64,000 nt of DNA from Mycoplasmatota bacterium. GTDB taxonomy: Bacteria; Bacillota_I; Bacilli_A; Haloplasmatales; Haloplasmataceae. The notes under the pieces were generated by a model. The model saw only the letters and a list, made by a program, of their open reading frames with translations. It ran no database searches and was not told where the DNA came from. Below are positions 23,852-48,341 of the stretch, one piece after another. The stretch covers positions 1,116,001 through 1,180,000 of the forward strand of contig CP074573.1 in NCBI GenBank assembly GCA_018394295.1. The letters run 5' to 3'. Within the stretch, counting starts at the first letter, position 1. Each line of letters begins with the position of its first letter. A program made the translations under genes and the position numbers.

Positions 23852-23876
23852 AATATTGAAGAAAGGAGTTGATATT

Positions 23877-24125
23877 ATGCCAAATATTAAACCTGTCTCA
23901 GATTTGAGAAATTATAATGAAGTATTAAAAGATATTACCATTGGTGCACCTGTATTTTTGACAAAAAATGGACGAGGAAGATACGCTATTGTTGATATTG
24001 AAGAATATGAAAAAAATCAAGCTACAATTAAGTTGATGTCTAAATTACTGGAAGCTGAACAAGCTGTTAAAAATGGTAATGAATGGTTAACTGAAGACCA
24101 AGTAAAGAAGGATTTGGGAGTGTAA
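23877..24125 (+). CDS. Phd/YefM-family antitoxin
   Basis: This 82-residue protein has the Phd/YefM DNA-binding N-terminus: IKPVSDLRNYNEVLKDI, then GAPVFLTKNGRGRYAIVDIEEYE. The C-terminal part is charged and probably wraps the toxin. The ATG at 23877 with AAAGGAG eight bases upstream is preferred over an in-frame TTG seven codons earlier. The toxin gene begins four bases after its stop. It should neutralise the toxin and repress the operon. Confidence 0.9.
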   Translation: MPNIKPVSDLRNYNEVLKDITIGAPVFLTKNGRGRYAIVDIEEYEKNQATIKLMSKLLEAEQAVKNGNEWLTEDQVKKDLGV

Positions 24126-24129
24126 TACA

Positions 24130-24444
24130 ATGCATAAACTAAGATTAAACCCTCTTGCTAAACAAGACTTAATAGATATAAAAGAGTATATCTTAACAGA
24201 GTTTGATAATCCTTCCGCAGCAGCTAATGTAATAAAAAGTATTATTAAGAGTTATGAAAAGTTAAAAGAATTTCCAATGTTTGGTGCCCTTTTATCATCA
24301 AAAATTGATATTAAATCTGATTATAAATATTTGATTTCAGGAGAATATATAATTTTTTATAAGGTTGAAAATCCTTATGTCTCAATTTATAGAATCTTAT
24401 CTTATAGAAGGGATTATATTAAAATTTTATTTAAAGAAGTGTAA
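24130..24444 (+). CDS. RelE/ParE-family toxin
   Basis: This 104-residue basic protein has the RelE/ParE pattern: KLRLNPLAKQDLIDIKEYI at the start, LKEFPMFGALL in the middle, and the C-terminal YKYLISGEYIIFYKVE...IYRILSYRRDY strand-rich core. Whether it cuts ribosome-bound mRNA (RelE) or inhibits gyrase (ParE) cannot be told by eye; the RILSYRRDY ending resembles ParE-like members. It is paired with the antitoxin four bases upstream and is followed by a terminator. Confidence 0.88.
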   Translation: MHKLRLNPLAKQDLIDIKEYILTEFDNPSAAANVIKSIIKSYEKLKEFPMFGALLSSKIDIKSDYKYLISGEYIIFYKVENPYVSIYRILSYRRDYIKILFKEV

Positions 24445-24834: not shown

Positions 24835-24883
24835 TTGACATATAATGTAATAAATGATAAAATATCAGTAGAAAACGCTTACA
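24835..24883 (+). promoter_or_regulatory. lysine operon promoter with cre-like operator
   Basis: TTGACA (24835-24840), a 17-base spacer and TAAAAT (24858-24863) form a near-consensus promoter. TAGAAAACGCTTACA (24869-24883) matches the cre consensus at 14 of 15 positions and covers the expected start of transcription. The riboswitch begins within the next 10 bases, so this promoter drives the leader and the lysine fermentation genes. Confidence 0.8.
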
Positions 24884-24891
24884 TATATTAA

Positions 24892-25047
24892 AGGTAGAGG
24901 CGCATTATTAATGAATACATGGTCAGAGGGTTGGCACCGTAGAAGATTATGGAAGATTAATAGTGCCGAAATGAATAATTAGGCCAACTATTATTCATTG
25001 GAATTACTTTACAATTCTGTCATTGTTTTTGACAATGGAGCGCTACC
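24892..25047 (+). ncRNA. lysine riboswitch (L box)
   Basis: The conserved core is present: AAGGTAGAGGCGC at the 5' end, GTGCCGAAATGAATAAT in the middle and ACAATGGAGCGCTACC at the 3' end. P1 is GGTAG/CTACC (3' strand 25043-25047). Visible helices include P2 (GGCGC and ATTAAT pairing with ATTAATAGTGCC), P4 (TGAATAAT/ATTATTCA) and P5 (CATTGT/ACAATG). Lysine riboswitches normally shut off lysine biosynthesis; here the downstream genes degrade lysine, which predicts the opposite, activating response. Confidence 0.93.
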
Positions 25048-25087
25048 GGTTAAACATACAATCTTTTTTATGTTTAACCGGTTTTTT
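25045..25087 (+). terminator. riboswitch-controlled terminator
   Basis: ACCGGTTAAACATA pairs perfectly with TATGTTTAACCGGT (14 bp) and is followed by six T residues. The first three bases of the stem (25045-25047) are also the last three of riboswitch helix P1, so P1 and the full terminator exclude each other. No separate antiterminator is visible. This arrangement favours read-through when lysine is bound. Confidence 0.85.
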
Positions 25088-25117
25088 GATTTTATTTTAT
25101 AGAAAAGGAGAAAAAGA

Positions 25118-25498
25118 ATGGAAGAAGTGATGATTAGACTTCGAATGAGTGCACATGATGCTCATTATGGTGGTGGATTAGTTGATGGAGCAAGGATGTT
25201 AGCATTATTTGGAGATGTAGCGACTGAGTTATTAATTCGTCTTGATGGTGATGAGGGATTATTTAGAGCGTATGAAAGTGTTGAATTTTTAGCACCAGTT
25301 TATGCTGGAGATTATATTGAAGCAGTGGGGCGAATTATTAAAAAGGGAAATACCTCAAGAAAAATGGAGTTTGAAGCGAGAAAAGTAATCCATCCTCGTA
25401 GTGATATCAATGATTCAGCGTGTGATGTATTAGAGGAACCTATTATAGTTTGTAAAGCAGTCGGTACATGTGTTGTACCTAAAGAAAAACAACGTTAG
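25118..25498 (+). CDS. kal: 3-aminobutyryl-CoA ammonia-lyase
   Basis: This 126-residue hotdog-fold protein begins [26 protein letters not shown] and has [18 protein letters not shown], matching Kal of lysine-fermenting bacteria. It removes ammonia from 3-aminobutyryl-CoA to give crotonyl-CoA, the last step specific to the lysine pathway. It is the first gene after the lysine riboswitch, with an AAAGGAG site, and is followed by kce. Confidence 0.92.
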
Positions 25499-25509: not shown

Positions 25510-26331
25510 ATGGAAAAACTAATAATTACTGCAGCGATATGTGGCGCAGAAGTAACCAAAGAACATACTAATGCAATTCCTTATACAATTGATGAAATTG
25601 TACGTGAAGCATATGGTGCTTACAAAGCAGGTGCTAGCATTATCCATTTACATGTAAGAGAGGATGATGGAACACCAACACAAAGCAAAGATCGTTTTAA
25701 AGAAGCGATAGATGCGATTAAGGCACATTGCCCAGATGTTATTATACAACCATCAACTGGTGGGGCAGTTGGTATGAGTTGTGATGAGAGATTACAACCA
25801 ATTGAACTTAATCCTGAAATGGCAACCCTTGATTGTGGAACACTTAATTTTGGTGGAGATGATATCTTTGTTAATACAGAAAATGATATTAAAGAGTTTG
25901 CTCGTCGCATTCAAGAAAAAAATATTAAACCAGAATTAGAGTGCTTTGAAAAAGGGCATATCGATATGGTATTAAGACTTCATAAAAAAGGGTTTATTAA
26001 GGGACCACTTCACTTTAGTTTTGTTTTAGGTGTTAATGGGGGGATGAGCGGAGAATTAAGAGATTTCTTATATATGAAAGAATCATTGCCACAGGATACT
26101 ACTTATTCAGTAGCTGGAATTGGTCGTTATGAATTTCCACTAGCTACAGTATCTATTTTAAGTGGAGGTCATGTAAGAGTTGGTTTTGAGGATAATATCT
26201 ATCTTAAAAAAGGTCAATTAGCGCAATCAAATGGTGAATTAGTCGAGAAAGTTGTACGACTAGCCAAAGAATTAGGGAGAGAAATTGCAACACCAGATGA
26301 AGCGCGTAAAATATTAGGAATAAATAAATAG
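25510..26331 (+). CDS. kce: 3-keto-5-aminohexanoate cleavage enzyme
   Basis: This 273-residue protein belongs to the BKACE (DUF849) family: IITAAICGAEVTKEHTNAIP, the metal-binding SIIHLHVREDDG (HxH), IIQPSTGGAVGM, GTLNFGGDDIF and the late GGHVRVGFEDNIYL. It joins acetyl-CoA with 3-keto-5-aminohexanoate to give acetoacetate and 3-aminobutyryl-CoA using Zn. It has an AGGAGG site and lies between kal and kdd, as expected for this pathway. Confidence 0.94.
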   Translation: MEKLIITAAICGAEVTKEHTNAIPYTIDEIVREAYGAYKAGASIIHLHVREDDGTPTQSKDRFKEAIDAIKAHCPDVIIQPSTGGAVGMSCDERLQPIELNPEMATLDCGTLNFGGDDIFVNTENDIKEFARRIQEKNIKPELECFEKGHIDMVLRLHKKGFIKGPLHFSFVLGVNGGMSGELRDFLYMKESLPQDTTYSVAGIGRYEFPLATVSILSGGHVRVGFEDNIYLKKGQLAQSNGELVEKVVRLAKELGREIATPDEARKILGINK

Positions 26332-33450: not shown

Positions 33451-34233
33451 ATGAATACGATTCTTTATGAAGTAAATGATAACATCGCGAAAATTACTTT
33501 TAATAGACCTAATGCCTTAAATGCAATCAATAAAGAAATGTTAAACGAATTGGATCAAGTTATTAATGAAATAAAGGCAGATGATAATATTCATTTTGTT
33601 CTCTTTACAGGTGTAGGGAAAGCATTTATTGCTGGAGCTGATATTTCAGAAATGGCTCATATGAACACATCAGAAGCAAAAGCTTATGGAAAATTTGGTG
33701 CAGATGTTTTTAGGAAAATCGAGTTATTAAAAAAAGTGACAATAGCAACAATTAATGGCTATTGTTTAGGTGGTGGAAATGAACTCGCAATGGCATGTGA
33801 TATTCGTATCGCATCAGAAAAGGCTAAATTTGGGCAACCAGAAGTCTCATTAGGGATTACACCAGGATTTTCTGGTACAATCCGTTTACCTAGAATTGTT
33901 GGTGTATCAAAAGCGAAAGAATTATTATTTACAGGTAAAATGATTGATGCTAAAGAAGCATTAACAATCGGTTTGGTATCATCTGTAGAACCATTAGAGT
34001 CTTTAAATGAAAAAGTTCATCATTTAATTCATTCTATTAACAAAAATTCATTACACGCTGTTTTGTCGACAAAACAAGTTGTAGATGAAGGAATTGAAGG
34101 TTCTTTAGACGATGGAATAGAATTAGAAACTGTTCATTTTTCAAATTGTTTTTCTTTCTATGATCAAAAAGAAGGAATGAATGCCTTTATTGAAAAAAGG
34201 AAAGCTAAATTTAATCACAACAAGGAGGAATAA
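33451..34233 (+). CDS. enoyl-CoA hydratase (crotonase)
   Basis: This 260-residue protein is a typical crotonase: [17 protein letters not shown], the oxyanion loop [10 protein letters not shown], and [21 protein letters not shown] with the catalytic glutamates. It probably interconverts crotonyl-CoA and 3-hydroxybutyryl-CoA. Its place in the lysine operon, directly before 3-hydroxybutyryl-CoA dehydrogenase, suggests it helps turn acetoacetyl-CoA into crotonyl-CoA and then butyrate. Confidence 0.92.
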
Positions 34234-34234
34234 G

Positions 34235-35080
34235 ATGAAAGTCCTTATTATTGGTAGTGGAACAATGGGAAGTGGCATTGCTCAAGTTATTGCACAATCT
34301 GGGCAAACGGTTATTTTAAATGATATATCAAGTGAATTAGTTGAAAAGGGTTATCAAAAAATTACACGGAATTTAGAAAAACTTGTTTCTAAAGGAAAAA
34401 TAACAGAGGAACAAAAAAATACAATATTAAATCATATTTCAATAAATACTGATATTAAAGAAGCCTATGATGTGGATTTAGTTATCGAAGCTGCTGTTGA
34501 AAATATGGAAATTAAGAAAAAAATATTTAAGCAACTAGATGAAACAATACAAAAAGATGCGATTTTAGCAACGAATACTTCTTCACTTTCGATAACAGAA
34601 ATTGCTGCTAGTACAACTAGATGTGATAAAGTCATCGGAATTCATTTCTTTAATCCTGCTCCAGTAATGAAATTAATAGAAGTAATAAAAGGATTAACAA
34701 CAAGTACTGAAACATTTAATACAATCATCGAGTTTGTTAAAAGTATTGGAAAAGAAGTGGTTAATGTTGAAGAAGCACCAGGATTTGTGGTTAACAGATT
34801 ACTAATTCCTATGATTAATGAAGCAATAGGCATATTATCAGAACAGGTCGCATCAGTAGAAGACATCGATAAAGCAATGATGTATGGCGCTAATCATCCG
34901 ATGGGACCACTTGCCTTATCTGATTTAATCGGTAATGATGTTGTTTTAGCGATCATGGAAGTATTATTTAAAGAATTTGGTGATCAAAAATATCGTCCGC
35001 ATCCGTATTTGAAAAAAATGGTGCGAGCTAATTTATTAGGAAGAAAAACTGGAAAAGGGTTTTATAATTATAAAAAATAA
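34235..35080 (+). CDS. hbd: 3-hydroxybutyryl-CoA dehydrogenase
   Basis: This protein of about 281 residues has the Rossmann motif [21 protein letters not shown], the active-site [32 protein letters not shown] and [13 protein letters not shown]. It reduces acetoacetyl-CoA to 3-hydroxybutyryl-CoA with NADH. The ATG at 34235, after AAGGAGGAATAAG, is the real start; longer in-frame versions run into the crotonase gene. With crotonase and the CoA-transferase it lets the acetoacetate half of lysine also become butyrate. Confidence 0.94.
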
Positions 35081-35108
35081 ATTAAAATTAACTTCAGGAG
35101 GTAAATAT

Positions 35109-35753
35109 ATGAAATTAATTGACATCAATGATTTTAAATCTCATTTTAAAGATGGAATGTCAATTATGGTAGGTGGATTTATGGCTGTTGGTACATCAGA
35201 ACCGTTAATTGATGCTTTAGTAGAATCTAATGTCAAAGATTTAACAATTATATGTAATGATGCTGGATTTCCTGATAAGGGGGTTGGGAAATTAATTGAA
35301 AATAAACAAGTGAAAAAATTGCTAGCTTCTCATATTGGATTAAATCCAACGGCTGGAAAAATGATGGCATCAGGAGAATTAGAAACGGTCCTCATTCCAC
35401 AAGGGACTTTAATTGAACAAATACGCGCAGGTGGGGCTGGGCTTGGTGGTGTATTAACAACAACAGGGATTGGAACAATAGTAGAAGAGACAAAACAAAA
35501 AATAGAAATTGATGGTGTTGAATTTTTAGTAGAAAAGCCTTTAAAAGCTGATGTAGCAATTATTAGAGGTTCAAAAGTTGATAAATATGGGAATGTCATC
35601 TATAATGCGACAACACGAAATTTTAATCCAATGATGGCAATGGCTTGTGAAAAGGTTTTTGTTTGGCCAGAACAATTAGTGGATGAATTAGATCCAAATC
35701 ATATCATAACTCCACATATCTTTGTTGATTACATTGTGAAGGAGGATGAGTAG
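35109..35753 (+). CDS. atoD: butyrate-acetoacetate CoA-transferase, subunit A
   Basis: This 214-residue protein has the 3-oxoacid CoA-transferase subunit A pattern: DGMSIMVGGFMAVGTSEPLIDAL, GGAGLGGVLTTTGIGT and VAIIRGSKVDKYGN. Together with subunit B it moves CoA from butyryl-CoA to acetoacetate, giving acetoacetyl-CoA and butyrate, the CoA-balancing step of lysine fermentation. It has a CAGGAGG site and is directly followed by atoA. Confidence 0.92.
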   Translation: MKLIDINDFKSHFKDGMSIMVGGFMAVGTSEPLIDALVESNVKDLTIICNDAGFPDKGVGKLIENKQVKKLLASHIGLNPTAGKMMASGELETVLIPQGTLIEQIRAGGAGLGGVLTTTGIGTIVEETKQKIEIDGVEFLVEKPLKADVAIIRGSKVDKYGNVIYNATTRNFNPMMAMACEKVFVWPEQLVDELDPNHIITPHIFVDYIVKEDE

Positions 35754-36431
35754 ATGGATAGTAGAAGCATTAAAGAAATTATAGCTAGAAGAGTTGCTTT
35801 AGAGTTAAGAGATGGTGATGTTGTTAATTTAGGAATTGGATTACCAACTTTAGTTGCTAATTATGTACCAGAAGGTATAAATGTTTATTTTCAATCTGAA
35901 AACGGGTTAATTAATTTAGGTCCTAAACCAAATGAAGGTGAAGAAGACTTTGATGTAACCAATGCAGGAGGACAACCGGTAACTATATTACCTGGCGGTG
36001 CATATTTTGATAGTTCTATTTCATTTTCTATAATACGTGGTGGACATGTTGATTTAACAGTCCTAGGGTCTTTAGAAGTAGATGAAAAAGGGAATATCGC
36101 TAATTGGATAATACCTGGAAAGATGGTACCTGGTATGGGTGGAGCAATGGATTTATTAGTTGGTGCTAAAAAAGTCATTGTTGCCATGAGTCATACAAAT
36201 AAAGGAAGACCAAAAATATTAAAAGAATGTACATTACCATTAACCGCTAAGGGTGAGGTTGATATGATATTTACTGAAATGGGTGTCATGGAAATTACAC
36301 CATCTGGTATAAAGTTAATTGAAATAAACCCAATGTTTACTGTAGAAGAAGTACAGGAAGCAACAGGTGCGCAATTAATTATTTCAGAAAATTTAAAAAT
36401 AATGGATGTTCCATATGAAAATAAAGCGTAA
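35754..36431 (+). CDS. atoA: butyrate-acetoacetate CoA-transferase, subunit B
   Basis: This 225-residue protein has the subunit B signature [19 protein letters not shown] and the catalytic glutamate in the [10 protein letters not shown] motif near residue 47, then [20 protein letters not shown]. It carries the glutamyl-CoA intermediate of the transferase. It starts after GGAGGATGAG, right after the subunit A stop. The next membrane-protein gene overlaps its end. Confidence 0.93.
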
Positions 36432-37304: not shown

Positions 37305-38534
37305 TTGAAACACATAAATGTTAATTCAGAAATAGGAAGACTAAAAAAGGTGTTGCTACATAGGCCAGGAAAAGAATTAGAAAATCTAAAACCTGAATGG
37401 TTAGAAAGGTTATTATTTGATGATATTCCTTGGCTCGAATTAGCACAAAAAGAACATGATGAATTTGCAGATGTATTTAGACAAAATAAAGTTGAAGTGG
37501 TTTATTTAGAGGACCTAGTCTCTGAAACGCTAGATCAAAGTAATGAACTAAAATCACAGTTTATAAGCCAGTTTCTTGATGAATCACATGTAGTAAGTGA
37601 GACATTAAGACATGTGGTAACTGAATATTTAAATTCTTTTGATAATACAAAAGAAATGATTGAAAAAACCATGTCTGGAATTCGTAAAAAAGAAATACCA
37701 AATTGGACAAAACGTACATTAAGTGATTATATTGGGGATTACCCATTTGTTTGTGATCCTATGCCTAATTTATATTTTACTAGAGACCCATTTAGTTCAG
37801 TTGGAAATGGGATCACAATGAGCAAAATGTATACTTTAACCCGTAGAAGAGAAACAATATTTGGTGATTATATCTTTAAGTATCATAATGTTTATGGAAA
37901 AAACAATGTTGAACGCTATTATGATAGAGACCAACCTTTTTCTATAGAAGGTGGCGATATCTTAGTTTTATCTGACAAAATATTAGCAGTTGGTGTCAGT
38001 CAAAGAACCCATCCACTAGCAATTGAATCATTGGTTAAAAATATCTTGTATAAGTATAATACTTCGTTTGAAATGGTTTTAGCGTTTGATATTCCTAAAA
38101 CCAGAGCATTTATGCATCTTGACACTGTTTTTACGCGTGTTGATCATGATAAATTTACTATTCATAGTCAAATTGACGATAATTTTAAAGTTTATGAATT
38201 AACTAAAGATACATTAAGACCAGGTAAATTAAGTGTAAAACCAATTGTTGAACGTTTAGATATTATATTATCACGATATCTCAATGAAAATGTTACCTTA
38301 ATACCATGTGGTGGTGGAGATGAAGTTATATCTGGTAGAGAACAATGGAACGATGGCGCAAATACATTAGCTTTATCACCAGGTGAAGTTATTGTGTATG
38401 GAAGAAATTATGTAACAAACGCTATTTTAAAAGAACATGGTGTTAAAGTACATGCCATTTCTTCAAGTGAACTATCAAGAGGACGTGGAGGTCCTCGATG
38501 TATGAGTATGCCTCTGTTACGTGAGGACGTTTAA
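37305..38534 (+). CDS. arcA: arginine deiminase
   Basis: This 409-residue enzyme has the ADI signatures: [20 protein letters not shown] at the start, [29 protein letters not shown] (the HxD region), [17 protein letters not shown] and the catalytic cysteine in [10 protein letters not shown]. It hydrolyses arginine to citrulline and ammonia. It starts at TTG after AAGGAGTTG and is the first gene of a run ending in ornithine breakdown, with arcB and arcC next. Confidence 0.96.
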
Positions 38535-38557
38535 TATATATTTTAGGAGGAATAAAA

Positions 38558-39553
38558 ATGCCAGTTAATATTAGAAGTAAAAATTTTATAACTTTATTAG
38601 ATTACACAACTAAAGAAATTAATTATTTGTTGAATCTTGCTGTTGATTTAAAGAAAGCAAAATATGCAGGTTATGAACAACCACAATTAAAAGGAAAAAA
38701 TGTTGTTTTATTATTTGAGAAAGATTCAACAAGAACTCGTTGTGCATTTGAAACGGGAGCTTATGATTTAGGAATGAGTGTTACCTATTTAGGTCCAACA
38801 GGAAGTCAAATGGGAAAAAAAGAAAGTGTTGCTGATACTGCAAGAGTATTAGGAAGAATGTATGATGGTATTGAATTCCGTGGATTCAAACAAGAAACAG
38901 TAGATGACTTAGCAAAATATGCTGGTGTACCTGTTTGGAATGGTTTGACCGATTTATATCATCCAACCCAAATCTTAGCTGATTTTATGACGATATTAGA
39001 ACATAAAGGTAGATTAAAAGGCATTAAATTTGCTTATGTTGGTGATACAAGAAATAATATGGGGAATTCATTAATGATTGGTGCTGCTAAAATGGGTCTT
39101 GATTTCCGTGCAGTAGCTCCTAAAGAATTATGGCCGGATGAAGAATTAGTTAAACAATGTCGTGAGATTGCTAAAGACACGCATGCAAAAATTACCTTAA
39201 CAGAAGATATTCTTGAGGGAACAAAAGGTGTAGATGTTATTTATACTGATGTATGGGTATCAATGGGTGAACCAGACGAAGTATGGGAAAAAAGAATTAA
39301 TCAATTAAAACCATACCAAGTGAATATGGATATGATTAATAATGCTGATGAAGAAGTTATCTTTATGCATTGTTTACCAGCATTCCACGATACAAAAACA
39401 GTTATTGGAAAACAAATATATGAGAAATTCGGTTTAACAAGTATGGAAGTTACCGATGAAGTATTTGAATCAAAACATTCTGTAGTATTTGATGAAGCTG
39501 AAAATCGTTTGCATACGATTAAAGCAGTCATGTTAGCAACTATAGGAGCATAA
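38558..39553 (+). CDS. arcB: ornithine carbamoyltransferase, catabolic
   Basis: This 331-residue protein has the carbamoyl-phosphate loop [17 protein letters not shown], the [12 protein letters not shown] loop, [19 protein letters not shown], and the HCLPAFHDT motif with the active-site cysteine. It splits citrulline phosphorolytically into ornithine and carbamoyl phosphate. An AGGAGG site precedes the ATG. Placement between arcA and arcC indicates the catabolic form. Confidence 0.95.
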
Positions 39554-39567
39554 TTAGGAGGGGAAAT

Positions 39568-40500
39568 ATGTCAAGAATTGTTGTCGCTCTAGGTGGTAAT
39601 GCTTTAGGTAAAACACCTTTTGAACAATTAAATCTAGTGAAACATACTGCGAAATCACTTGTTGAATTAATTGCGAAAGGGAATGAAGTAATTATTACCC
39701 ATGGCAATGGACCTCAAGTAGGTATGATTAATTTAGCGTTTGAAACTGCTTCATTAAGTGAAACAAAATCACCTGAAATGCCATTTCCAGAATGTGGAGC
39801 TATGAGTCAGGGATATATTGGATATCATTTACAAAATGCGATTTATGCAGAATTAAAAAATCAAAAAATAAATAAGAAAGTTGCTACAATCGTGACACAA
39901 GTTGTTGTTGATAAAGATGACGGTGCTTTTACTAATCCAACAAAGCCAATTGGGTCTTTTTATAATAAAGAAGAAGCCGATAAAATCGAAAAAGAAAAAG
40001 GTTATATTTTTAAGGAAGATTCAGGTCGTGGATGGCGACGTGTTGTTCCTAGTCCTAAACCAGTTGATGTTGTTGAAAAAGATATTGTTAATACATTAGT
40101 TAATGCAGGGCATATTGTCATTACCGTTGGTGGTGGAGGAATTCCTGTTATTGAAGAAAATGGTCAATTGACTGGCGTTTCAGCAGTTATTGATAAAGAT
40201 TTCGCTAGTAGTAAAATTGCTGAAATATTAGATGCAGACTATCTATTCATATTAACAGCAGTTGATAAAGTATCGATTAATTTTAATAAACCAAATCAAA
40301 TAGATTTAGATTCTTTAACCGTAGAAAAAGCAAAAGAATATATTTTGGAAAACCATTTTGCTAAAGGTAGTATGTTACCAAAAATTGAAGCTGCGATGAG
40401 TTTTGCTGCTAGTAAAAAAGGTAGGGTAGCAGTCATTGCTTCACTTGAAAAAGTTAAAGCTGCCTTAGATGGAAAAAGTGGTACAAAAGTTACCTTATAA
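39568..40500 (+). CDS. arcC: carbamate kinase
   Basis: This 310-residue protein belongs to the amino acid kinase fold: IVVALGGNALGKTPFEQ, VIITHGNGPQVGMINL, GGGGIPVIEENGQLTGV with DKDFASSKIAEILDADYLFILTAVD following, and AKGSMLPKIEAA. It uses carbamoyl phosphate to make ATP, the energy-yielding step of the arginine deiminase pathway. It has an AGGAGGGG site and lies 14 bases after arcB. No arcD antiporter gene follows. Confidence 0.95.
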   Translation: MSRIVVALGGNALGKTPFEQLNLVKHTAKSLVELIAKGNEVIITHGNGPQVGMINLAFETASLSETKSPEMPFPECGAMSQGYIGYHLQNAIYAELKNQKINKKVATIVTQVVVDKDDGAFTNPTKPIGSFYNKEEADKIEKEKGYIFKEDSGRGWRRVVPSPKPVDVVEKDIVNTLVNAGHIVITVGGGGIPVIEENGQLTGVSAVIDKDFASSKIAEILDADYLFILTAVDKVSINFNKPNQIDLDSLTVEKAKEYILENHFAKGSMLPKIEAAMSFAASKKGRVAVIASLEKVKAALDGKSGTKVTL

Positions 40501-40522
40501 TTAAAATAATGGAGTTGATGTT

Positions 40523-41572
40523 ATGAGAAATGAAAAAGTGAGAGTTGCCATTTGGGGATTTGGAGCAATGGGAAGCGGAATGGCTAGAATGATTCTAAAA
40601 AAAACTGGCTTTGAAATAGTAGGGGTTTGTGATAAAAATCAAAATTATGTAGGGAAAAATATTTTTACTATTTTAGATATGCCTCAAAAAGATCATCCTA
40701 GTGTTCTAGTTAATGATAATATTGATGAAGTTGTTAGTGAAAAATCATGTGATGTTGCCTTATTAGCAACTGATTCTTTTACAAAAAATGCATTTCCTAA
40801 AATTAAATTATTATTGAATAAAAAAGTTAATGTTATTTCTACTGCTGAAGAAATGGCATATCCACAAGCACAAAGTCCTGAATTAGCTAGTGAAATGGAC
40901 CGTATCGCCAAAGAAAATGGTGTTACAGTTCTTGGTACAGGAATAAATCCTGGAATGATGATGGATTTATTAGTTGTTTGTCTAACAGGTGTTATGGAAG
41001 ATGTTGAACATATTGATGTTAGTCGTGTAAACAGTTTATCACCATTTGGACATGCTGTCATGGAAGAACAAGGTGTAGGATTATCAGTTGAAGAATTTAA
41101 CAAGCGATTAGAAAATAACACAATGGCAGGTCATGTTGGTTTTTCTGAGAGTGTACATATGATAGCTGATGCCTTAAGATGGAAAGTAGATCAATTTTCA
41201 CAACAAATGAAACCTATTATCACTGATGTAGATAGAAAATCACCTTATGGATTTGCAGCAAAAGGTGATGTTTGTGGTGTTGCGATGACAGGTCAAGGTA
41301 GTGTTAATGGTGAAGTTAAGATTAATATGGACCATCCACAACAAATTGAACCACAATTAGCTGGGGTAGATACTGGAGATTATATTAAAATTAAAGGAAC
41401 ACCAGAAGTCAATATGGCTATTAATCCAGAAGTAGATGGTGGAATTGGGACAATCGCTATGTGTGTTAATATGATTCCTCATGTTATTAATGCTAAAAAT
41501 GGATTAAAAACAATGATAGACCTACCTGTTCCACGTGCTATTATGGGTGATGTAAGAGAAATGATTGATTAA
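40523..41572 (+). CDS. ord: 2,4-diaminopentanoate dehydrogenase
   Basis: This 349-residue protein begins with the NAD(P)-binding VAIWGFGAMGSGMARMI and contains LGTGINPGMMMDLLVV and SRVNSLSPFGHAVMEEQG, matching Ord of ornithine-fermenting clostridia. It oxidatively deaminates 2,4-diaminopentanoate to 2-amino-4-ketopentanoate. It lies 22 bases after arcC, the junction between the arginine and ornithine parts of the operon. Confidence 0.93.
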   Translation: MRNEKVRVAIWGFGAMGSGMARMILKKTGFEIVGVCDKNQNYVGKNIFTILDMPQKDHPSVLVNDNIDEVVSEKSCDVALLATDSFTKNAFPKIKLLLNKKVNVISTAEEMAYPQAQSPELASEMDRIAKENGVTVLGTGINPGMMMDLLVVCLTGVMEDVEHIDVSRVNSLSPFGHAVMEEQGVGLSVEEFNKRLENNTMAGHVGFSESVHMIADALRWKVDQFSQQMKPIITDVDRKSPYGFAAKGDVCGVAMTGQGSVNGEVKINMDHPQQIEPQLAGVDTGDYIKIKGTPEVNMAINPEVDGGIGTIAMCVNMIPHVINAKNGLKTMIDLPVPRAIMGDVREMID

Positions 41573-41585
41573 AGAGGTAGATAAA

Positions 41586-41891
41586 ATGATTAAAAAAGGA
41601 ACTTGGGTTCAAATTCATAAGATTATTTTAGAACCAAAAGATAGAGCGCCTCAAGTACCTGATGATACTAAAAAAATACCTCTAGAAATGTGGGTAAAAG
41701 GTTTTTTAGTAGAGGATGGTAACTTGGGTGAGATTGTCCAAATTAAGACCTTAACTAATCGTATTGAAGAAGGCGAATTAGTCCAAGAAAATCCATCGTT
41801 TAAACATAATTTTGGTCATTTTGTTCCTGAAATTATTCAAATTGGACAGATGGTAAAAGATTTTATGTTTGGAGATGAGATAAATGAATAA
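41586..41891 (+). CDS. ortA: 2-amino-4-ketopentanoate thiolase, alpha subunit
   Basis: This protein of about 101 residues matches OrtA: KGTWVQIHKIILEPKDRAPQVP and LTNRIEEGELVQENPSFKHNFG. The ATG at 41586 follows AGAGGTAGATAAA; the frame is open slightly further upstream but without a site. It is the small partner of the thiolase that cleaves 2-amino-4-ketopentanoate with CoA to alanine and acetyl-CoA. It overlaps ortB by eight bases. Confidence 0.93.
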   Translation: MIKKGTWVQIHKIILEPKDRAPQVPDDTKKIPLEMWVKGFLVEDGNLGEIVQIKTLTNRIEEGELVQENPSFKHNFGHFVPEIIQIGQMVKDFMFGDEINE

Positions 41892-43308
41892 AGATATGTC
41901 ATATGCTAGTATTATGTCTCGTCGTAATGAAATTATGAAAAAGTCAGTGGGAATAGACTATGAGGTTTATGAGAATAAGGGAATCGGATTTGATTATGAA
42001 AAGATGATGCAAAATGCAACACCCTATTCATTAGATGAGATTAAACAAATTCAATATAATAATGGGGTAGGAAACACTCCTTTGAAAGAATTGAAAAATA
42101 TTTCAGCAATGGCTAGAAAATTAGCGCCAAAAGGAAAGGGTGCTAGGATATTCATTAAAGATGAAGCTTTAAATGATTCAGGTAGTTTTAAGGCAAGACG
42201 TGCAGCAATCAGTTGTTATCATGCTAAAAAATGTGGTTATAAAGGGGTTATGGCTGCTACATCAGGAAATTATGGTGCCGCTGTTGCTTCTCAAGCTGCT
42301 AAGTATGGATTAAAATGTATTATTGTACAAGAATGTTTTGATTCTAGAGGAGTTGGACAACCTGAAATAATTGAAAAAGCAAGAAAATGTGAAGCATTGG
42401 GAGCTGAAGTTATACAACTAAGTGTCGGACCAGAATTATTTTATTCATCCTTAAAATTATTAGAAGAAACAGGTTGTTTTAATGCATCATTATATACACC
42501 ATTTGGAATTGCTGGAATTGAAACGTTAGGATATGAACTTGTGAAACAGTGTGAAGCTCAAGTTGGTAAGGTACCTGATGTTGTTGTTTGTACGAATGCT
42601 GGTGGTGGAAACTTAACAGGTACGGCTCGTGGTATATTAAAAGCAACTGATCAATCCGTTCAAATTGTTGGAGCAAGTGTTAATTTAAAAGGATTACATA
42701 TGGCAAGTGATTATCAGTTTAATCGTAAATCTTTTACGACTGGTCATACTGGATTTGGTATTCCATTTGCGACTTATCCAGATCGTTCAGATGTACCAAG
42801 GTCAGCTGCTCGCCCACTTCGATATATAGACCGTTATGTTACCGTTAATCAAGGTGAAGTATTTTATATGACTGAGACATTATCCATATTAGAAGGAATT
42901 GAGAGGGGTCCTGCTGGTAATACATCTTTAGTAGCAGCATTTAGTATTGCACAAGAATTAGATGAAGACCAAATCATTGTTGTTCAAGAAACAGAATATA
43001 CAGGAGCTGGTAAACATCATGGTGCTCAACTTTCATTTGCAAGAGATAATGGTGTGAAGATAGAATTTGGAAATCCAGTGAATGAAGTACCTGGTGAAAA
43101 TATTATTCTACCTGAAACTCCAAGTCTTATTAAAGCAATAGATCTAGATTTATTAAAAGTTAAAAAATCTTGTGTTAAAAATCATATTAAAAACAATTCA
43201 AATGTTACTTTATCTGAGGAGGATGTATTATTTTTAATGGAAGAAACGAATGAAAGTAAAGTTTTCGTGTTAGATACATTAAAAGAGTTAGGAATAAAAA
43301 TTGACTGA
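41884..43308 (+). CDS. ortB: 2-amino-4-ketopentanoate thiolase, beta subunit (PLP)
   Basis: This 474-residue protein is a fold-type II PLP enzyme with the cofactor lysine in LNDSGSFKARRAA (near residue 100), the ATSGNYGAAVASQAAKYG loop and VVCTNAGGGNLTGTARG phosphate site. It is the catalytic thiolase subunit giving alanine and acetyl-CoA. It overlaps ortA by eight bases and ends in TGA just before oraS. Confidence 0.93.
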   Translation: MNKDMSYASIMSRRNEIMKKSVGIDYEVYENKGIGFDYEKMMQNATPYSLDEIKQIQYNNGVGNTPLKELKNISAMARKLAPKGKGARIFIKDEALNDSGSFKARRAAISCYHAKKCGYKGVMAATSGNYGAAVASQAAKYGLKCIIVQECFDSRGVGQPEIIEKARKCEALGAEVIQLSVGPELFYSSLKLLEETGCFNASLYTPFGIAGIETLGYELVKQCEAQVGKVPDVVVCTNAGGGNLTGTARGILKATDQSVQIVGASVNLKGLHMASDYQFNRKSFTTGHTGFGIPFATYPDRSDVPRSAARPLRYIDRYVTVNQGEVFYMTETLSILEGIERGPAGNTSLVAAFSIAQELDEDQIIVVQETEYTGAGKHHGAQLSFARDNGVKIEFGNPVNEVPGENIILPETPSLIKAIDLDLLKVKKSCVKNHIKNNSNVTLSEEDVLFLMEETNESKVFVLDTLKELGIKID

Positions 43309-43320
43309 AGAGGTGATAAT

Positions 43321-43695
43321 TTGGAAAAATTAATGACAAGAAAAGATGATTTTGAAGTTAGAAGAAAACATTTAGAAAATTTGACTGATGAAGAATTAAA
43401 AATAAGATTTTGGGATTTAGCATATAGAGTAATAGATCCACTTATTACTCTAGCAAAAGAAAATACATCCCCAGCAATTGAACGATCTGTTCTTTTACGT
43501 ATGGGATTTTCAAGTATTGAAGCAAAAGCTATCGTTGACCGTGTTATAGACTATGGATTAATTGGAAAAGGTGCTGGTCATGTTGTCTACAAACTTGCTC
43601 AATTGAAAAAAATGTCTATCCGAGAAGCTGGATTAAATTTACTTGAAGGAGATTACTGGGACGAAGTATTAAATAGCTTTGAGGTGGTGAAATAA
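43321..43695 (+). CDS. oraS: D-ornithine 4,5-aminomutase, small subunit
   Basis: This 124-residue protein matches OraS in length and sequence (RRKHLENLTDEELKIRFWDL, PAIERSVLLRMGFSS, GKGAGHVVYKLA). It pairs with OraE to form the adenosylcobalamin/PLP aminomutase. It starts at TTG after AGAGGTGATAAT. Its stop overlaps the oraE start by one base. Confidence 0.93.
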   Translation: MEKLMTRKDDFEVRRKHLENLTDEELKIRFWDLAYRVIDPLITLAKENTSPAIERSVLLRMGFSSIEAKAIVDRVIDYGLIGKGAGHVVYKLAQLKKMSIREAGLNLLEGDYWDEVLNSFEVVK

Positions 43696-45905
43696 TGACA
43701 TTAAAACCTAATGAAAAGTTAGATATTCGTGAATTAATGAAGAATATCGAAGACTACAAACCTAAACGTCGTGGATGGGTTTGGAGAAAACATGAACCAA
43801 ATTTAAATATGAATGGCTACAATTATAGTGAAGTTTCAACACCATTAAAAAATAGTGTTCCATTACCTGCAGCGAAATATTTTAATCAAATAGACCCACA
43901 ACCTTTACCTGTTATAACAACAGAAATTGCTTCAGGTCGTTTTGAAGATGATATTAGAAGAATGAGAATGGCTGCTTGGCATGGTGCGGATCACATCATG
44001 GTTATAAGAACAGCTGGGCAATCTCATTTTGATGGACTAATTGAAGGGACACCTCAAGGGATAGGTGGAATTCCTGTTACTAGAAAACAAGTTAGACTTC
44101 AACGTAAAGCATTAGATATCATTGAAGAAGAGGTTGGACGTCCGATTAATTACCATTCTTATGTTTCAGGTGTAGCTGGTCCAGATATTGCGGTTATGTT
44201 TGCTGAAGAAGGAGTTAATGGTGCTCATCAAGACCCACAATATAATGTTTTATATCGTAATATAAATATGATTCGTTCCTTTGTAGATGCAGCTGAATCA
44301 AAAAAAATCATGGCATGGGCAGATACTTTACAAATTGATGGTGCACACAATGCTAATGCTACTGCACGAGATGCGTGGAAAGTAATGCCTGAGTTATTAG
44401 TTCAACATGCAATTAACTCTGCTTTTTCTACTAAAGTAGGGATGAAAAAAGAAAATATAGCATTATCAACTGTACCACCAACTGCAGCTCCTGCTCCTGA
44501 TTTAAAAATTAATTTACCTTATGCAGTTGCTTTAAGAGAGTTTTTCTCAGAATTTAAAATGCGTGCTCAAATGAACACGAAATATATGGAATCTTCAACC
44601 AGAGATGCAACTGTAACGCATGTATTAAATTTATTAATATCAAAATTAACAAGTGCTGACATTCAATCAACCATAACTCCTGATGAAGGACGAAATGTCC
44701 CATGGCACATGTATAATGTTGAAGCATGTGATACTGCTAAACAAGCATTAATCGGTATGGATGGATTAATGGAAATGGTAGAATTAAAAGATGAAGGTTT
44801 CTTACGAAATAAGGTAAGAGAGTTAAAAGAACGTGCTGTTTTATTCTTAGAAGAAATGATTGAAAATGGTGGCTATTTTGATGCGGTTGAAAAAGGATTT
44901 TTTATTGATTCAGGAATTTACCCAGAACGTAATGGAGATGGTATTGCCCGTAAGATGGAAGGTGGCGTTGGTGTAAATACAGTTTATAAACGTGATGATG
45001 ATTATTTTGCGCCTGTTACTGCTCACTTTGGGTATAATAATGTGGCACAATATGATGAATCAGCAGTAAATAATCCTGCTAAATTAATTGAAGGCTCTAC
45101 ATTTGAGAAACCTGAGAAAATTATTTTTATTGATGAATTAGATGAAAATGATAATGTTTATAAACGATTAGATGAAACTGAAAAATATCGACTTACTTCA
45201 ATTGTTAAGCCAGAGGTAGAATGGTTAGCAGATGGTGTTGTTGTAGTGGATTTAGTGTTACCAACTGATAGACGACATGCTGAGGTTGCTGCGTTAGAAA
45301 TTGGTAAGAAGATGAATTTGATGGATGTTGAAGTGATTCACAGAGAAGTGTTACATCAAGCAGAAGGAACTCGTATACAACTAAAAGGAAAAGTACCTTT
45401 TGATATTGACTTAATTTCATTAACTATTCCAGAAGAACCAGAAGAATTATCAGATGATGAAATTAGAAACTATGTAAAAGATCATGGTTTAAAAGTCGTT
45501 GCAGCTACTGTTGGTGAAGATGAGCATTCGGTTGGTATGAGAGAAATCATAGACATTAAACATGGTGGTATTGAAAAATATGGTGTTGATTGCGTATATT
45601 TAGGTACCTCTGTACCAATTGAAAAATTAATTGATGCAGCAATTGAAACAAATGCTGATGCAATTTTAGCATCTACAATTATTTCTCATGATGAAATTCA
45701 TTATAGAAATATGAAAAAGATTCATGAATTAGCCATTGAAAAAGGAATCCGTGATAAAGTAATTATTATTTGTGGTGGAACACAAGTATCACCTGAAATT
45801 GCTAAGACACAAGGAATTGATGCAGGCTTTGGTAGGGGAACAAAGGGTGTCCATGTTGCTTCTTTCTTAGTTAATCGTAAACAGGAATTACTTAATGAAG
45901 ATTGA
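43695..45905 (+). CDS. oraE: D-ornithine 4,5-aminomutase, large subunit
   Basis: This 736-residue protein has the TIM-barrel region (AAWHGADHIMVIRTAGQSHFDG, IGGIPVTRKQVRLQRKAL) and, near residue 610, the cobalamin-binding DxHxxG motif in GEDEHSVGMREIIDIKHGG, followed by VIIICGGTQVSPEIAKTQGIDAGFG. It moves the terminal amino group of D-ornithine to carbon 4. The length equals known OraE proteins. It ends in TGA, which shows that TGA is a stop in this organism. Confidence 0.95.
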   Translation: MTLKPNEKLDIRELMKNIEDYKPKRRGWVWRKHEPNLNMNGYNYSEVSTPLKNSVPLPAAKYFNQIDPQPLPVITTEIASGRFEDDIRRMRMAAWHGADHIMVIRTAGQSHFDGLIEGTPQGIGGIPVTRKQVRLQRKALDIIEEEVGRPINYHSYVSGVAGPDIAVMFAEEGVNGAHQDPQYNVLYRNINMIRSFVDAAESKKIMAWADTLQIDGAHNANATARDAWKVMPELLVQHAINSAFSTKVGMKKENIALSTVPPTAAPAPDLKINLPYAVALREFFSEFKMRAQMNTKYMESSTRDATVTHVLNLLISKLTSADIQSTITPDEGRNVPWHMYNVEACDTAKQALIGMDGLMEMVELKDEGFLRNKVRELKERAVLFLEEMIENGGYFDAVEKGFFIDSGIYPERNGDGIARKMEGGVGVNTVYKRDDDYFAPVTAHFGYNNVAQYDESAVNNPAKLIEGSTFEKPEKIIFIDELDENDNVYKRLDETEKYRLTSIVKPEVEWLADGVVVVDLVLPTDRRHAEVAALEIGKKMNLMDVEVIHREVLHQAEGTRIQLKGKVPFDIDLISLTIPEEPEELSDDEIRNYVKDHGLKVVAATVGEDEHSVGMREIIDIKHGGIEKYGVDCVYLGTSVPIEKLIDAAIETNADAILASTIISHDEIHYRNMKKIHELAIEKGIRDKVIIICGGTQVSPEIAKTQGIDAGFGRGTKGVHVASFLVNRKQELLNED

Positions 45906-47262
45906 TGTATTAGTTGCTGAAATTGGCAGTACAACAACAGTAGTGAATGCTTTCGTTGGTATTTTAGGTAATAAACCTCGGTTTATTGGCTAAGGTCAAG
46001 CACCTACATCTGTGAATTTAGGCGATGTAAATATCGGTTTAAATGAAGCTATAAATAGTCTTAAAGGAAATTTAAATGATGATAATTTAGAAATAGGAGA
46101 AATCTTTGCCACTAGTAGTGCTGCAGGGGGATTAAAAATGACGGTTCATGGTCTTGTTTATGATATGACCGTCAAAGCAGCACAAAACGCTGCATTAGGT
46201 GCAGGAGCAAATATTCATTTGGTTACAAGTGGTAAATTATCAAAATTTGATATATCCAAAGTTAAAAAGATTAATCCAAATATTATTTTAATTGCCGGTG
46301 GGGTAGATTATGGAGAAAAGCAAACTGCTTTAAATAATGCCTATGAGATAGCTAATTTACAATTAAATATTCCAGTTATATATGCTGGTAATTGTGTTAT
46401 TATTGATGAGGTTAAAGAAATATTTAATAATTTTGGACAAGAAAAATTTTTAACGGTTACAGAAAATGTTTATCCTAAAATAGACGAATTAAATGTTGAA
46501 CCAACTAGAAAGATTATTCAGGATGTCTTCGAAGAACATATTATTCATGCTCCAGGCATGAATGAAGTTCGAAAAATTGTTAAAGAACGGATTATACCAA
46601 CACCCGGAGCTGTAATGCAAGCTTCAAAATTATTAAAAGAATCTCTTTCTGATTTAATTGCTTTTGATGTTGGTGGTGCAACAACCGATCTTCATTCAGT
46701 GACCAATGGGAGTGAAGATGTTAATAGAATTTTAATCAGTCCAGAACCTATTGCCAAAAGAACAGTTGAAGGAGATTTAGGTGTTTATGTTAATCGTGAT
46801 AATATTATTCAGATGATTGGAAAAGAACAATTAGCAAAAGATTTAGAGCTACCTTTAAATCAGTTAGATTCTTTGTTAAATCATTTTGAACCAATACCAA
46901 AAGGTAAACAAATTCCATTAGTAGAAAGATTAACGCAAGAAGCCTTAGCAGTTGCTTTAGATAGACATTGTGGTCAATACAGAAACTTATATGGTTCACA
47001 GGGTTGTATGAAATTAGCAGAAGGTAAAGATTTAACAAGCGTGAAATATGTTATTGGAACCGGTGGTGCTTTAACAAGACTACCAAATCGGAAAACATTA
47101 TTAGAAAACTTAATTAAAAAACAAAATCCAACTAAATTAACACCATCTTCAGAAGCTTCCATTTTAATTGATAATGAGTATATTATGGCATCTCTTGGTG
47201 TATTATCTTTAAAATACCCTGAACAAGCTTTAAAATTGCTTTTAAATAGTTTAGGATTGTAG
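45895..47262 (+). pseudogene. ornithine aminomutase reactivase-like (MutL/GlmL family), interrupted by an in-frame TAA
   Basis: The full frame runs from ATG 45895 (AGGA site eight bases upstream, overlapping oraE by 11) to 47262, but codon 33 is TAA (45991-45993). The sequence reads NKPRFIG-stop-GQAPTSVNLGDVNIGL, where relatives have a glutamine (CAA), so one C-to-T change explains it. The rest is open and intact, with IAFDVGGATTDLHSVT. The first ATP motif VAEIGSTTTVVNAF lies before the stop, so restart at GTG 46012 would give an incomplete ATPase. Family members (GlmL/or-4) reactivate cobalamin mutases. Confidence 0.75.
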
Positions 47263-47270
47263 GTGATAGA

Positions 47271-48341
47271 GTGTACCCTCAAATTAAAATCAATCTTGAT
47301 AAATTAGCACATAATACTAAAACGATGGTTAATATCTGTCGCGCTAATGGTATCACTTCAATTTTTGGGGTGACTAAAGTGTTAGCTGGTGATATAAAAG
47401 TCTTAGATACCGTAATTTCTTCTGGAATTACACATATAGCTGATTCAAGAATAGAAAATTTAAAGTTATTACAGCATTATCAATTACCAAAAGTTTTGCT
47501 AAGACTACCGATGAAAAGTGAAGTAGAAGCAGTTGTTAAATACACGGATATTTCTTTAAATTCTGAATTAGAAATCATTAAACTTTTAGATAAGGAAGCA
47601 AATAAAAAAAATAAAATTCATCAAATCATCCTAATGTTTGATTTAGGTGATTTGCGAGAAGGAATTTGGTTTGAAGATAATTATTTAGAACTTGTTAAGA
47701 GTATCTTAAACCTTAAAAACATTCAGATAATTGGAATTGGTACGAATTTAACTTGTTATGGAGCAGTAATACCTACTGAAGAAAATTTATCGACATTAGT
47801 TAAGATAAAAAATGACATTGAAAATCAATTTCAGATTAAACTTGATATTATTTCTGGGGGAAATTCTTCAAGTTTACATTTGATTTTTAAAAACAAATTA
47901 CCAAAAGGAATTAATAATTTACGGATTGGTGAAGCTATTTTTTTAGGTCGGGAAACAGCTTATGAAGAAAATATTAAACCTTGTTTTCAAGATGTATTTA
48001 CCTTAAAAGCTGAAATAATTGAATTAAAAGAAAAACCATCGTTTCCTATTGGGGAGAGAGGAGTCGATGCGTTTGGTGAACAAGTTCAGTATGAGGATGT
48101 TGGGTTAATGAAACGGGCTATATTAGCTATTGGTAAACAAGATATTTATCCATCTAATATAAGACCAATAGATGATAAAATTAATTTTTTAGGAGCTAGT
48201 AGTGATCATCTACTCGTTGATGTTACTAAAGGAAATTATAAAATAGGGGAGAGCATTTCCTTTAGAGTGAATTATGGTGGACTACTTCAACTCATGACTT
48301 CTCCATACGTAAATAAAGTATATGTAAAAAAGCATGAATAA
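47271..48341 (+). CDS. orr: ornithine racemase
   Basis: This 356-residue protein is an alanine-racemase-fold PLP enzyme. The N-terminal IKINLDKLAHNTKTMVNICR and FGVTKVLAGD (with the PLP lysine) match ornithine racemase, as do SGGNSSSLHLIF and LRIGEAIFLGRETAY. It makes D-ornithine, the substrate of OraSE. It starts at GTG after TAGGTGATA and is the last gene of the arginine/ornithine operon. Confidence 0.92.
   Translation: MYPQIKINLDKLAHNTKTMVNICRANGITSIFGVTKVLAGDIKVLDTVISSGITHIADSRIENLKLLQHYQLPKVLLRLPMKSEVEAVVKYTDISLNSELEIIKLLDKEANKKNKIHQIILMFDLGDLREGIWFEDNYLELVKSILNLKNIQIIGIGTNLTCYGAVIPTEENLSTLVKIKNDIENQFQIKLDIISGGNSSSLHLIFKNKLPKGINNLRIGEAIFLGRETAYEENIKPCFQDVFTLKAEIIELKEKPSFPIGERGVDAFGEQVQYEDVGLMKRAILAIGKQDIYPSNIRPIDDKINFLGASSDHLLVDVTKGNYKIGESISFRVNYGGLLQLMTSPYVNKVYVKKHE

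What the first reader, a model, noticed from the sequence alone, without database searches (positions are those of the whole stretch)
24892..25087. Lysine riboswitch before lysine-degradation genes, with P1 overlapping the terminator (predicted ON switch)
Seen: an L-box aptamer whose P1 3' strand (25043-25047) shares bases 25045-25047 with the start of a 14-bp terminator stem, and no antiterminator strand is visible between them. Known: lysine riboswitches usually repress lysine synthesis or uptake; activating versions before lysine-catabolic operons have been proposed for other fermenters. Inferred: bound lysine stabilises P1, weakens the terminator base and lets RNA polymerase read into kal-kce-kdd-kamABCDE. 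Only three bases overlap, so the switch strength is uncertain.
Basis: partly seen in the sequence, partly recalled or inferred. Interest (0 to 1): 0.82.

Follow-up and report, generated by a model that had tools for sequence, protein, structure and literature searches.

The report
Lysine-activated riboswitch before lysine-fermentation operon
An RNA lysine sensor sits in front of a bacterium's genes for fermenting lysine and is wired, by sharing three bases with a transcription stop signal, to switch those genes on when lysine is present; this reverses the usual lysine riboswitch, but it is a layout already proposed for lysine-eating bacteria and shown here to be common.

Summary
Window 24887-25053 is a complete lysine (L-box) aptamer (102 bits). 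P1 (24893-24897/25043-25047) shares 25045-25047 with the base of a 14-bp terminator; kal-kce-kdd-kamABCDE follows. The ON interpretation is well supported by computation, not by experiment. In 36 of 47 catabolic L-boxes (17 of 17 in the window's own class) the best terminator includes the 3' strand of P1; in lysA, transporter and other L-boxes 3 of 66 (Fisher P = 2e-16, not corrected for kinship). Forcing P1 lowers terminator pairing in 31 of 46 catabolic leaders and 2 of 63 others. In the window P1 is cost-free until the terminator base is transcribed, then costs 3.5-3.7 kcal/mol, which lysine binding could pay. No antiterminator was found. New here: five leaders also keep an identical promoter core and a catabolite-repression (cre)-like site over the start point, suggesting 'lysine present and no better sugar'. 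ON-logic lysine riboswitches before kal/kce were already proposed (PMC5584792; PMC2258182), so this is a new member of a known kind with an unusually small overlap. Weak point: whether an 11-bp hairpin three bases from the U-tract really stops terminating.

The parts
24835..24863 (+). Promoter: TTGACA (24835-24840), 17-nt spacer, TG-extended TAAAAT (24858-24863)
   Evidence: 11 of 12 consensus matches; TTGAC and the TG.TAAA core invariant in five leaders of the order
24869..24884 (+). cre-like catabolite-repression site TAGAAAACGCTTACAT over the expected transcription start
   Evidence: AAACGCTTACA invariant in five leaders while the flanks differ; fits WTGNAANCGNWNNCWW at 15 of 16 positions (consensus from memory). 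Function inferred
24887..25053 (+). Lysine riboswitch aptamer (L-box)
   Evidence: RF00168, 102.2 bits, E 4.6e-26, model 1-182
24893..24897 (+). P1 5' strand GGUAG
   Evidence: Rfam alignment, sequence
24930..24935 (+). L2 half of the L2-L3 kissing interaction, GUUGGC
   Evidence: complementary to 24983-24988
24983..24988 (+). L3 half of the kissing interaction, GCCAAC
25043..25047 (+). P1 3' strand CUACC; 25045-25047 shared with the terminator
25045..25087 (+). Intrinsic terminator: stem 25045-25058/25069-25082, U-tract 25082-25087
   Evidence: -18.2 kcal/mol; arms conserved in five genomes and found once per genome, only in this leader
25104..25110 (+). Ribosome-binding site AAAGGAG of kal, outside all helices of the switch
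   Evidence: sequence
25118..25498 (+). kal, 3-aminobutyryl-CoA ammonia lyase
   Evidence: NF052388, 200.8 bits, cut-off 160
25510..26331 (+). kce, 3-keto-5-aminohexanoate cleavage enzyme
   Evidence: NF052387, 450.2 bits
26344..27378 (+). kdd, 3,5-diaminohexanoate dehydrogenase
   Evidence: NF052381, 274.6 bits
27390..28631 (+). kamA, lysine 2,3-aminomutase
   Evidence: TIGR03820, 627.5 bits
28615..29652 (+). kamB, lysine 5,6-aminomutase reactivase subunit
   Evidence: NF052386, 387.5 bits
29642..31063 (+). kamC, reactivase ATPase (MutS-like)
   Evidence: NF052383, 411.7 bits
31071..32630 (+). kamD, lysine 5,6-aminomutase alpha
   Evidence: NF052384, 902.3 bits
32632..33441 (+). kamE, lysine 5,6-aminomutase beta
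   Evidence: NF052385, 396.4 bits

Best explanation
This is a transcriptional ON lysine riboswitch that acts by direct overlap. The aptamer folds first and P1 pairs 24893-24897 with 25043-25047 at no cost. Without lysine, once RNA polymerase has made 25080-25082, these bases pair with 25045-25047, open P1 and complete the 14-bp terminator, so transcription stops at about 25087. Bound lysine holds P1 closed, the terminator loses its three basal pairs next to the U-tract, and polymerase reads into kal-kce-kdd-kamABCDE. Shown by computation: aptamer, overlap, conservation, lack of an antiterminator, sign of the energy change. Inferred: lysine binding, real termination, and loss of termination when the three pairs are lost. 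A conserved cre-like site over the start point probably adds sugar repression, so the operon would need lysine and the lack of a preferred sugar (inferred).
For: Aptamer 102 bits with an intact core. P1 costs 0.1 kcal/mol or less up to RNA end 25079 (0.5 at the very moment P1 is completed), 2.2 at 25081, 3.5-3.7 at 25082-25083. Forced P1 sets the three basal pairs to 0; forbidden P1 gives terminator 0.96. Five leaders in the order keep the same overlap, and the terminator occurs once per genome. L185, from another family, has an unrelated terminator sequence but the same short overlap. Catabolic L-boxes overlap in 36 of 47 against 3 of 66 others, P 2.4e-16; within the window's own class 17 of 17. 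Sign test: 31 ON, 2 OFF, 13 neutral for catabolic; 2 ON, 27 OFF, 34 neutral for others. The layout holds where the first gene is a MaoC-like gene upstream of kal (L147-L152) or kce (L064). Prior proposals: PMC5584792, PMC2258182.
Against: No lysine-binding, transcription or expression data. The 11-bp hairpin that stays when P1 is closed is still about -7.5 kcal/mol and ends 3 nt before the U-tract, so some termination may continue. The leaders are related, so the Fisher P is too small. Folding ignored kinetics, Mg2+, tertiary contacts and RNA polymerase; lysine was modelled only as a P1 bonus. Eleven catabolic leaders, mostly Clostridium, do not overlap at their best terminator, and their ON logic is not shown.
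Confidence: 0.84

Rival explanations
1. The aptamer and terminator are real but barely coupled: the 11-bp hairpin left when P1 is closed still terminates, so lysine changes read-through only slightly and the cre-like site does most of the control.
For: Remaining stem -7.5 kcal/mol, offset only 3 nt; P1 only 5 bp; the overlap is among the smallest of the catabolic leaders.
Against: The 3-nt overlap is kept in five genomes whose aptamer arms and terminator loops differ, and recurs with another terminator sequence in L185; the basal part next to the U-tract carries 10.7 of 18.2 kcal/mol.
Confidence: 0.1
2. Classical OFF switch: lysine-closed P1 favours the terminator through a hidden antiterminator.
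For: The usual logic of lysine riboswitches; the own genome's second L-box (L002, before an ABC transporter gene) has the separate-terminator layout of that kind.
Against: Terminator probability is 0.96 with P1 forbidden and about 0.3 over the four basal pairs with P1 favoured, the opposite sign; no space between P1 and the terminator; repressing a lysine-degrading operon with lysine makes no metabolic sense.
Confidence: 0.03
3. Control at translation or RNA decay rather than termination.
For: Such lysine riboswitches exist in gamma-proteobacteria (PMC5584792).
Against: The ribosome-binding site 25104-25110 lies outside all predicted helices, after a strong terminator with a U-tract.
Confidence: 0.03

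Closest known systems
Catabolic L-boxes before kal/kce (Clostridium sticklandii, Fusobacterium nucleatum, Thermoanaerobacter), described as positively regulated in PMC5584792
   Same: Lysine aptamer before kal and kce, proposed activation by lysine
   Different: Here the gene run is kal-kce-kdd-kamABCDE; the overlap is only 3 nt; conserved cre-like site. Their expression platforms were not described in the passages read.
Lysine ON riboswitches that bury pieces of terminator stems (PMC2258182, citing Rodionov 2003)
   Same: The same stated logic: binding buries part of a terminator stem
   Different: No Haloplasma-group case named in what was read; Rodionov 2003 itself was not available
Bacillus subtilis pbuE adenine riboswitch (from memory)
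   Same: Ligand-stabilised P1 blocks an overlapping terminator; ON transcriptional switch
   Different: Different aptamer and ligand
Bacillus subtilis lysC L-box (OFF)
   Same: Aptamer class RF00168, intrinsic terminator
   Different: There lysine promotes termination by freeing the terminator from an antiterminator; here no antiterminator and the opposite sign

Membership tests
Lysine riboswitch aptamer (RF00168) | Sequence and structure above the family's gathering score | tested here: met
   102.2 bits against 30, full-length
Lysine riboswitch aptamer (RF00168) | L2-L3 kissing interaction | tested here: met
   GTTGGC 24930-24935 / GCCAAC 24983-24988
Lysine riboswitch aptamer (RF00168) | Binds lysine | not testable with these tools
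   Needs in-line probing or calorimetry
Transcriptional ON riboswitch with direct P1/terminator overlap | P1 3' strand is part of the terminator stem | tested here: met
   25045-25047 shared; conserved in relatives
Transcriptional ON riboswitch with direct P1/terminator overlap | P1 formation lowers, not raises, terminator formation | tested here: met
   0.96 to 0.31 over the four basal pairs; three basal pairs 0 when P1 is forced
Transcriptional ON riboswitch with direct P1/terminator overlap | Ligand increases read-through | not testable with these tools
   Needs single-round transcription
Classical OFF L-box | Separate terminator and an antiterminator blocked by P1 | tested here: not met
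CcpA/cre control | cre-like site near the promoter, conserved | tested here: met
CcpA/cre control | CcpA and HPr kinase in the genome | tested here: inconclusive
   HPr kinase 376.7 bits, above cut-off 240; best CcpA homologue 336.6 bits, below cut-off 442

The most novel reading that the evidence does not exclude
Lysine riboswitches before lysine-fermentation operons form a widespread ON subclass with its own expression platform, in which P1 is itself the switch against the terminator; the Haloplasma-group form is its minimal, nearly balanced version (3 shared bases) and is combined with sugar repression into a two-input gate.
Probability: 0.6. Interest if true: 0.5.

Novelty: new member of a known kind. 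Interest (0 to 1): 0.42.

Why it matters
Lysine riboswitches are textbook OFF switches. The comparison here of 113 leaders shows that overlap of P1 with the terminator separates catabolic from biosynthetic and transport L-boxes, so ON or OFF sign can be predicted from sequence, and one genome holds both layouts. The short-overlap form gives a simple, testable system for how few shared base pairs a ligand-gated terminator needs.

Tried and rejected
Searched for an antiterminator between the aptamer and the terminator: none. Looked for a longer P1 (UUAA 24888-24891 with 25050-25053 across a small internal loop): possible on paper, not conserved in relatives and not chosen in the folds. Clostridium leaders with a late second terminator (L048, L050, L057, L075, L076, L079, L097, L107, L111): an anti-P1 hairpin is visible, and an antiterminator made from its 3' arm looked plausible by eye, but duplex energies reached P below 0.05 in only 3 of 11 leaders tested, so their logic stays open. 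The first automatic terminator search over-extended stems and was replaced. The idea that repeated 3' segments in some leaders are matched to their own P5 was tested and not supported. Rodionov 2003 (gkg900, PMC290268) is not held, so its text could not be checked. No paper on lysine regulation in Haloplasma was found.

Full report
What is there. The window carries one Rfam RNA, a lysine riboswitch aptamer at 24887-25053 on the + strand, 102.2 bits, full length. P1 is the 5-bp helix 24893-24897/25043-25047. The next helix, a 14-bp stem 25045-25058/25069-25082 followed by six U (25082-25087), starts inside the 3' strand of P1. The two helices exclude each other at 25045-25047. Downstream, in order, are kal, kce, kdd, kamA, kamB, kamC, kamD and kamE, all above NCBIfam cut-offs, so the operon is the lysine fermentation pathway.

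Where it comes from. The genome is 3.29 Mb. Its same-genus relative G005 carries a locus (L021) identical to a deposited Haloplasma contractile assembly (L051), so the window belongs to the Haloplasma group. The genome has a second lysine riboswitch (L002) before an ABC transporter binding protein, with a separate terminator 36 nt after P1, the layout expected of an OFF switch. Its sign came out neutral in my folding test.

Is the overlap more than chance? I collected 113 distinct lysine riboswitch leaders: relatives in the order and class, and kal loci from many other bacteria. For each I found the best terminator-like hairpin before the first gene. Gene classes were assigned by sequence motifs in my script, not by family searches. 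Among 47 leaders of lysine-catabolic operons (kal, kce, or a MaoC-like gene upstream of kal), 36 have a best terminator that takes in the P1 3' strand; among 66 others (lysA, several transporter types and so on) 3 do, and in those three a terminator without overlap also exists. Fisher P is 2.4e-16, with the caution that leaders are related. In the window's own class 17 of 17 catabolic leaders overlap.

Does the overlap give the right sign? I folded each leader with P1 favoured and with P1 penalised. Terminator pairing fell with P1 in 31 of 46 catabolic leaders, rose in 2 and was neutral in 13; among the others it fell in 2, rose in 27 and was neutral in 34. For the window it fell from 0.96 to 0.31 over the four basal pairs, the remainder being the fourth pair, which P1 does not touch. 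With P1 forced, the three shared pairs are 0 and the upper 11 pairs stay.

Is three bases enough? Along the growing RNA, P1 costs 0.1 kcal/mol or less from shortly after it is made up to 25079, then 2.2 at 25081 and 3.5-3.7 at 25082-25083, when the three basal pairs are completed. So without ligand P1 is the default until the last moment and then loses to the terminator. A cost of this size can be paid by a ligand at a few hundred times its dissociation constant (my estimate). The related leaders behave alike: 3.0 to 6.1 kcal/mol in three more, and 8.6 in L020, where a wobble pair was also enforced. Leaders with 9-12 nt overlap mostly cost 7-16. The basal part carries most of the stem's stability (-18.2 against -7.5 kcal/mol). 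What cannot be computed is whether the shortened hairpin, three bases from the U-tract, still terminates; this is the main uncertainty.

Conservation beyond the overlap. Five genomes of the order share the terminator arms CCGGTTAAACAT/ATGTTTARCCGG exactly once per genome, only in this leader, while loops and aptamer arms differ. L185, a kal leader from another family, has a different terminator sequence with the same short overlap. L129, from yet another family, has almost the Haloplasma-group sequence, which may mean transfer.

A second input. The same five leaders keep a strong promoter (TTGACA, 17 nt, TG-TAAAAT) and AAACGCTTACA just after it, over the expected start point. This fits a cre site. 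The genome has HPr kinase and a LacI-family protein that is the best CcpA match but below the curated cut-off. I infer that sugar repression is combined with lysine activation.

What is known. PMC5584792 states that lysine riboswitches before kal/kce in C. sticklandii, F. nucleatum and Thermoanaerobacter are positively regulated; PMC2258182 states that some lysine riboswitches with ON logic bury pieces of terminator stems, citing Rodionov 2003. I could not read the 2003 paper. The idea is therefore not new; the Haloplasma-group case, the minimal overlap, the promoter/cre conservation and the quantitative split between catabolic and other L-boxes are what this work adds. I found no experiment showing activation by lysine in the papers searched, which is a limited open-access library.

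Verdict. A lysine-activated transcriptional riboswitch by direct P1/terminator overlap: anatomy confirmed, logic well supported by comparison and energetics, function untested.

Noticed in passing
L060, L064, L067, L087, L100, L102 (kal leaders); L121, L153, L154, L169, L171 (transporter leaders), 44-117 nt after the aptamer's own 3' end: The last ~16 nt of the lysine aptamer (P5 3' strand, GGAGNGC junction, P1 3' strand) recur downstream, usually next to a further terminator. 9 of 104 leaders reach 13 or more of 17 matches, against 0 of 104 in reversed sequence. It might let one aptamer serve several stops in series; the copies are not specially matched to their own P5.
   Followed up: partly
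L048, L050, L057, L066, L075, L076, L079, L097, L107, L111: Clostridium kal leaders often have a P1-overlapping hairpin and then a second, separate terminator, mostly 53-62 nt after P1; the logic of the second is unclear.
   Followed up: partly
L031, L147-L152: In other families of the class the L-box sits 0.4-1.9 kb upstream of kal, before a small MaoC-like gene, with the same overlap layout. The MaoC reading is by eye, and kal proximity was checked by coordinates for all but L152.
   Followed up: partly
window 33451-36431: Crotonase-like, 3-hydroxybutyryl-CoA dehydrogenase-like and acetate CoA-transferase genes continue the operon order, completing a route from lysine to butyrate.
   Followed up: partly
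window 37305-48341: Genes that look like arginine deiminase, ornithine carbamoyltransferase, carbamate kinase and the oxidative ornithine pathway (ord, ortA, ortB, oraS, oraE, reactivator, racemase): an amino-acid fermentation island (names by eye).
   Followed up: no
window 23856-24444: A pair of small genes resembling a Phd/YefM-type antitoxin and a RelE/ParE-type toxin just upstream (by eye).
   Followed up: no
L012 (same genus), L011, L014-L016: lysA leaders in the group carry short L-boxes, in two genomes as tandem pairs (L011/L015 and L014/L016).
   Followed up: no
L063:729-789: RAGATH-18 RNA upstream of the kal locus of Haloimpatiens lingqiaonensis.
   Followed up: no
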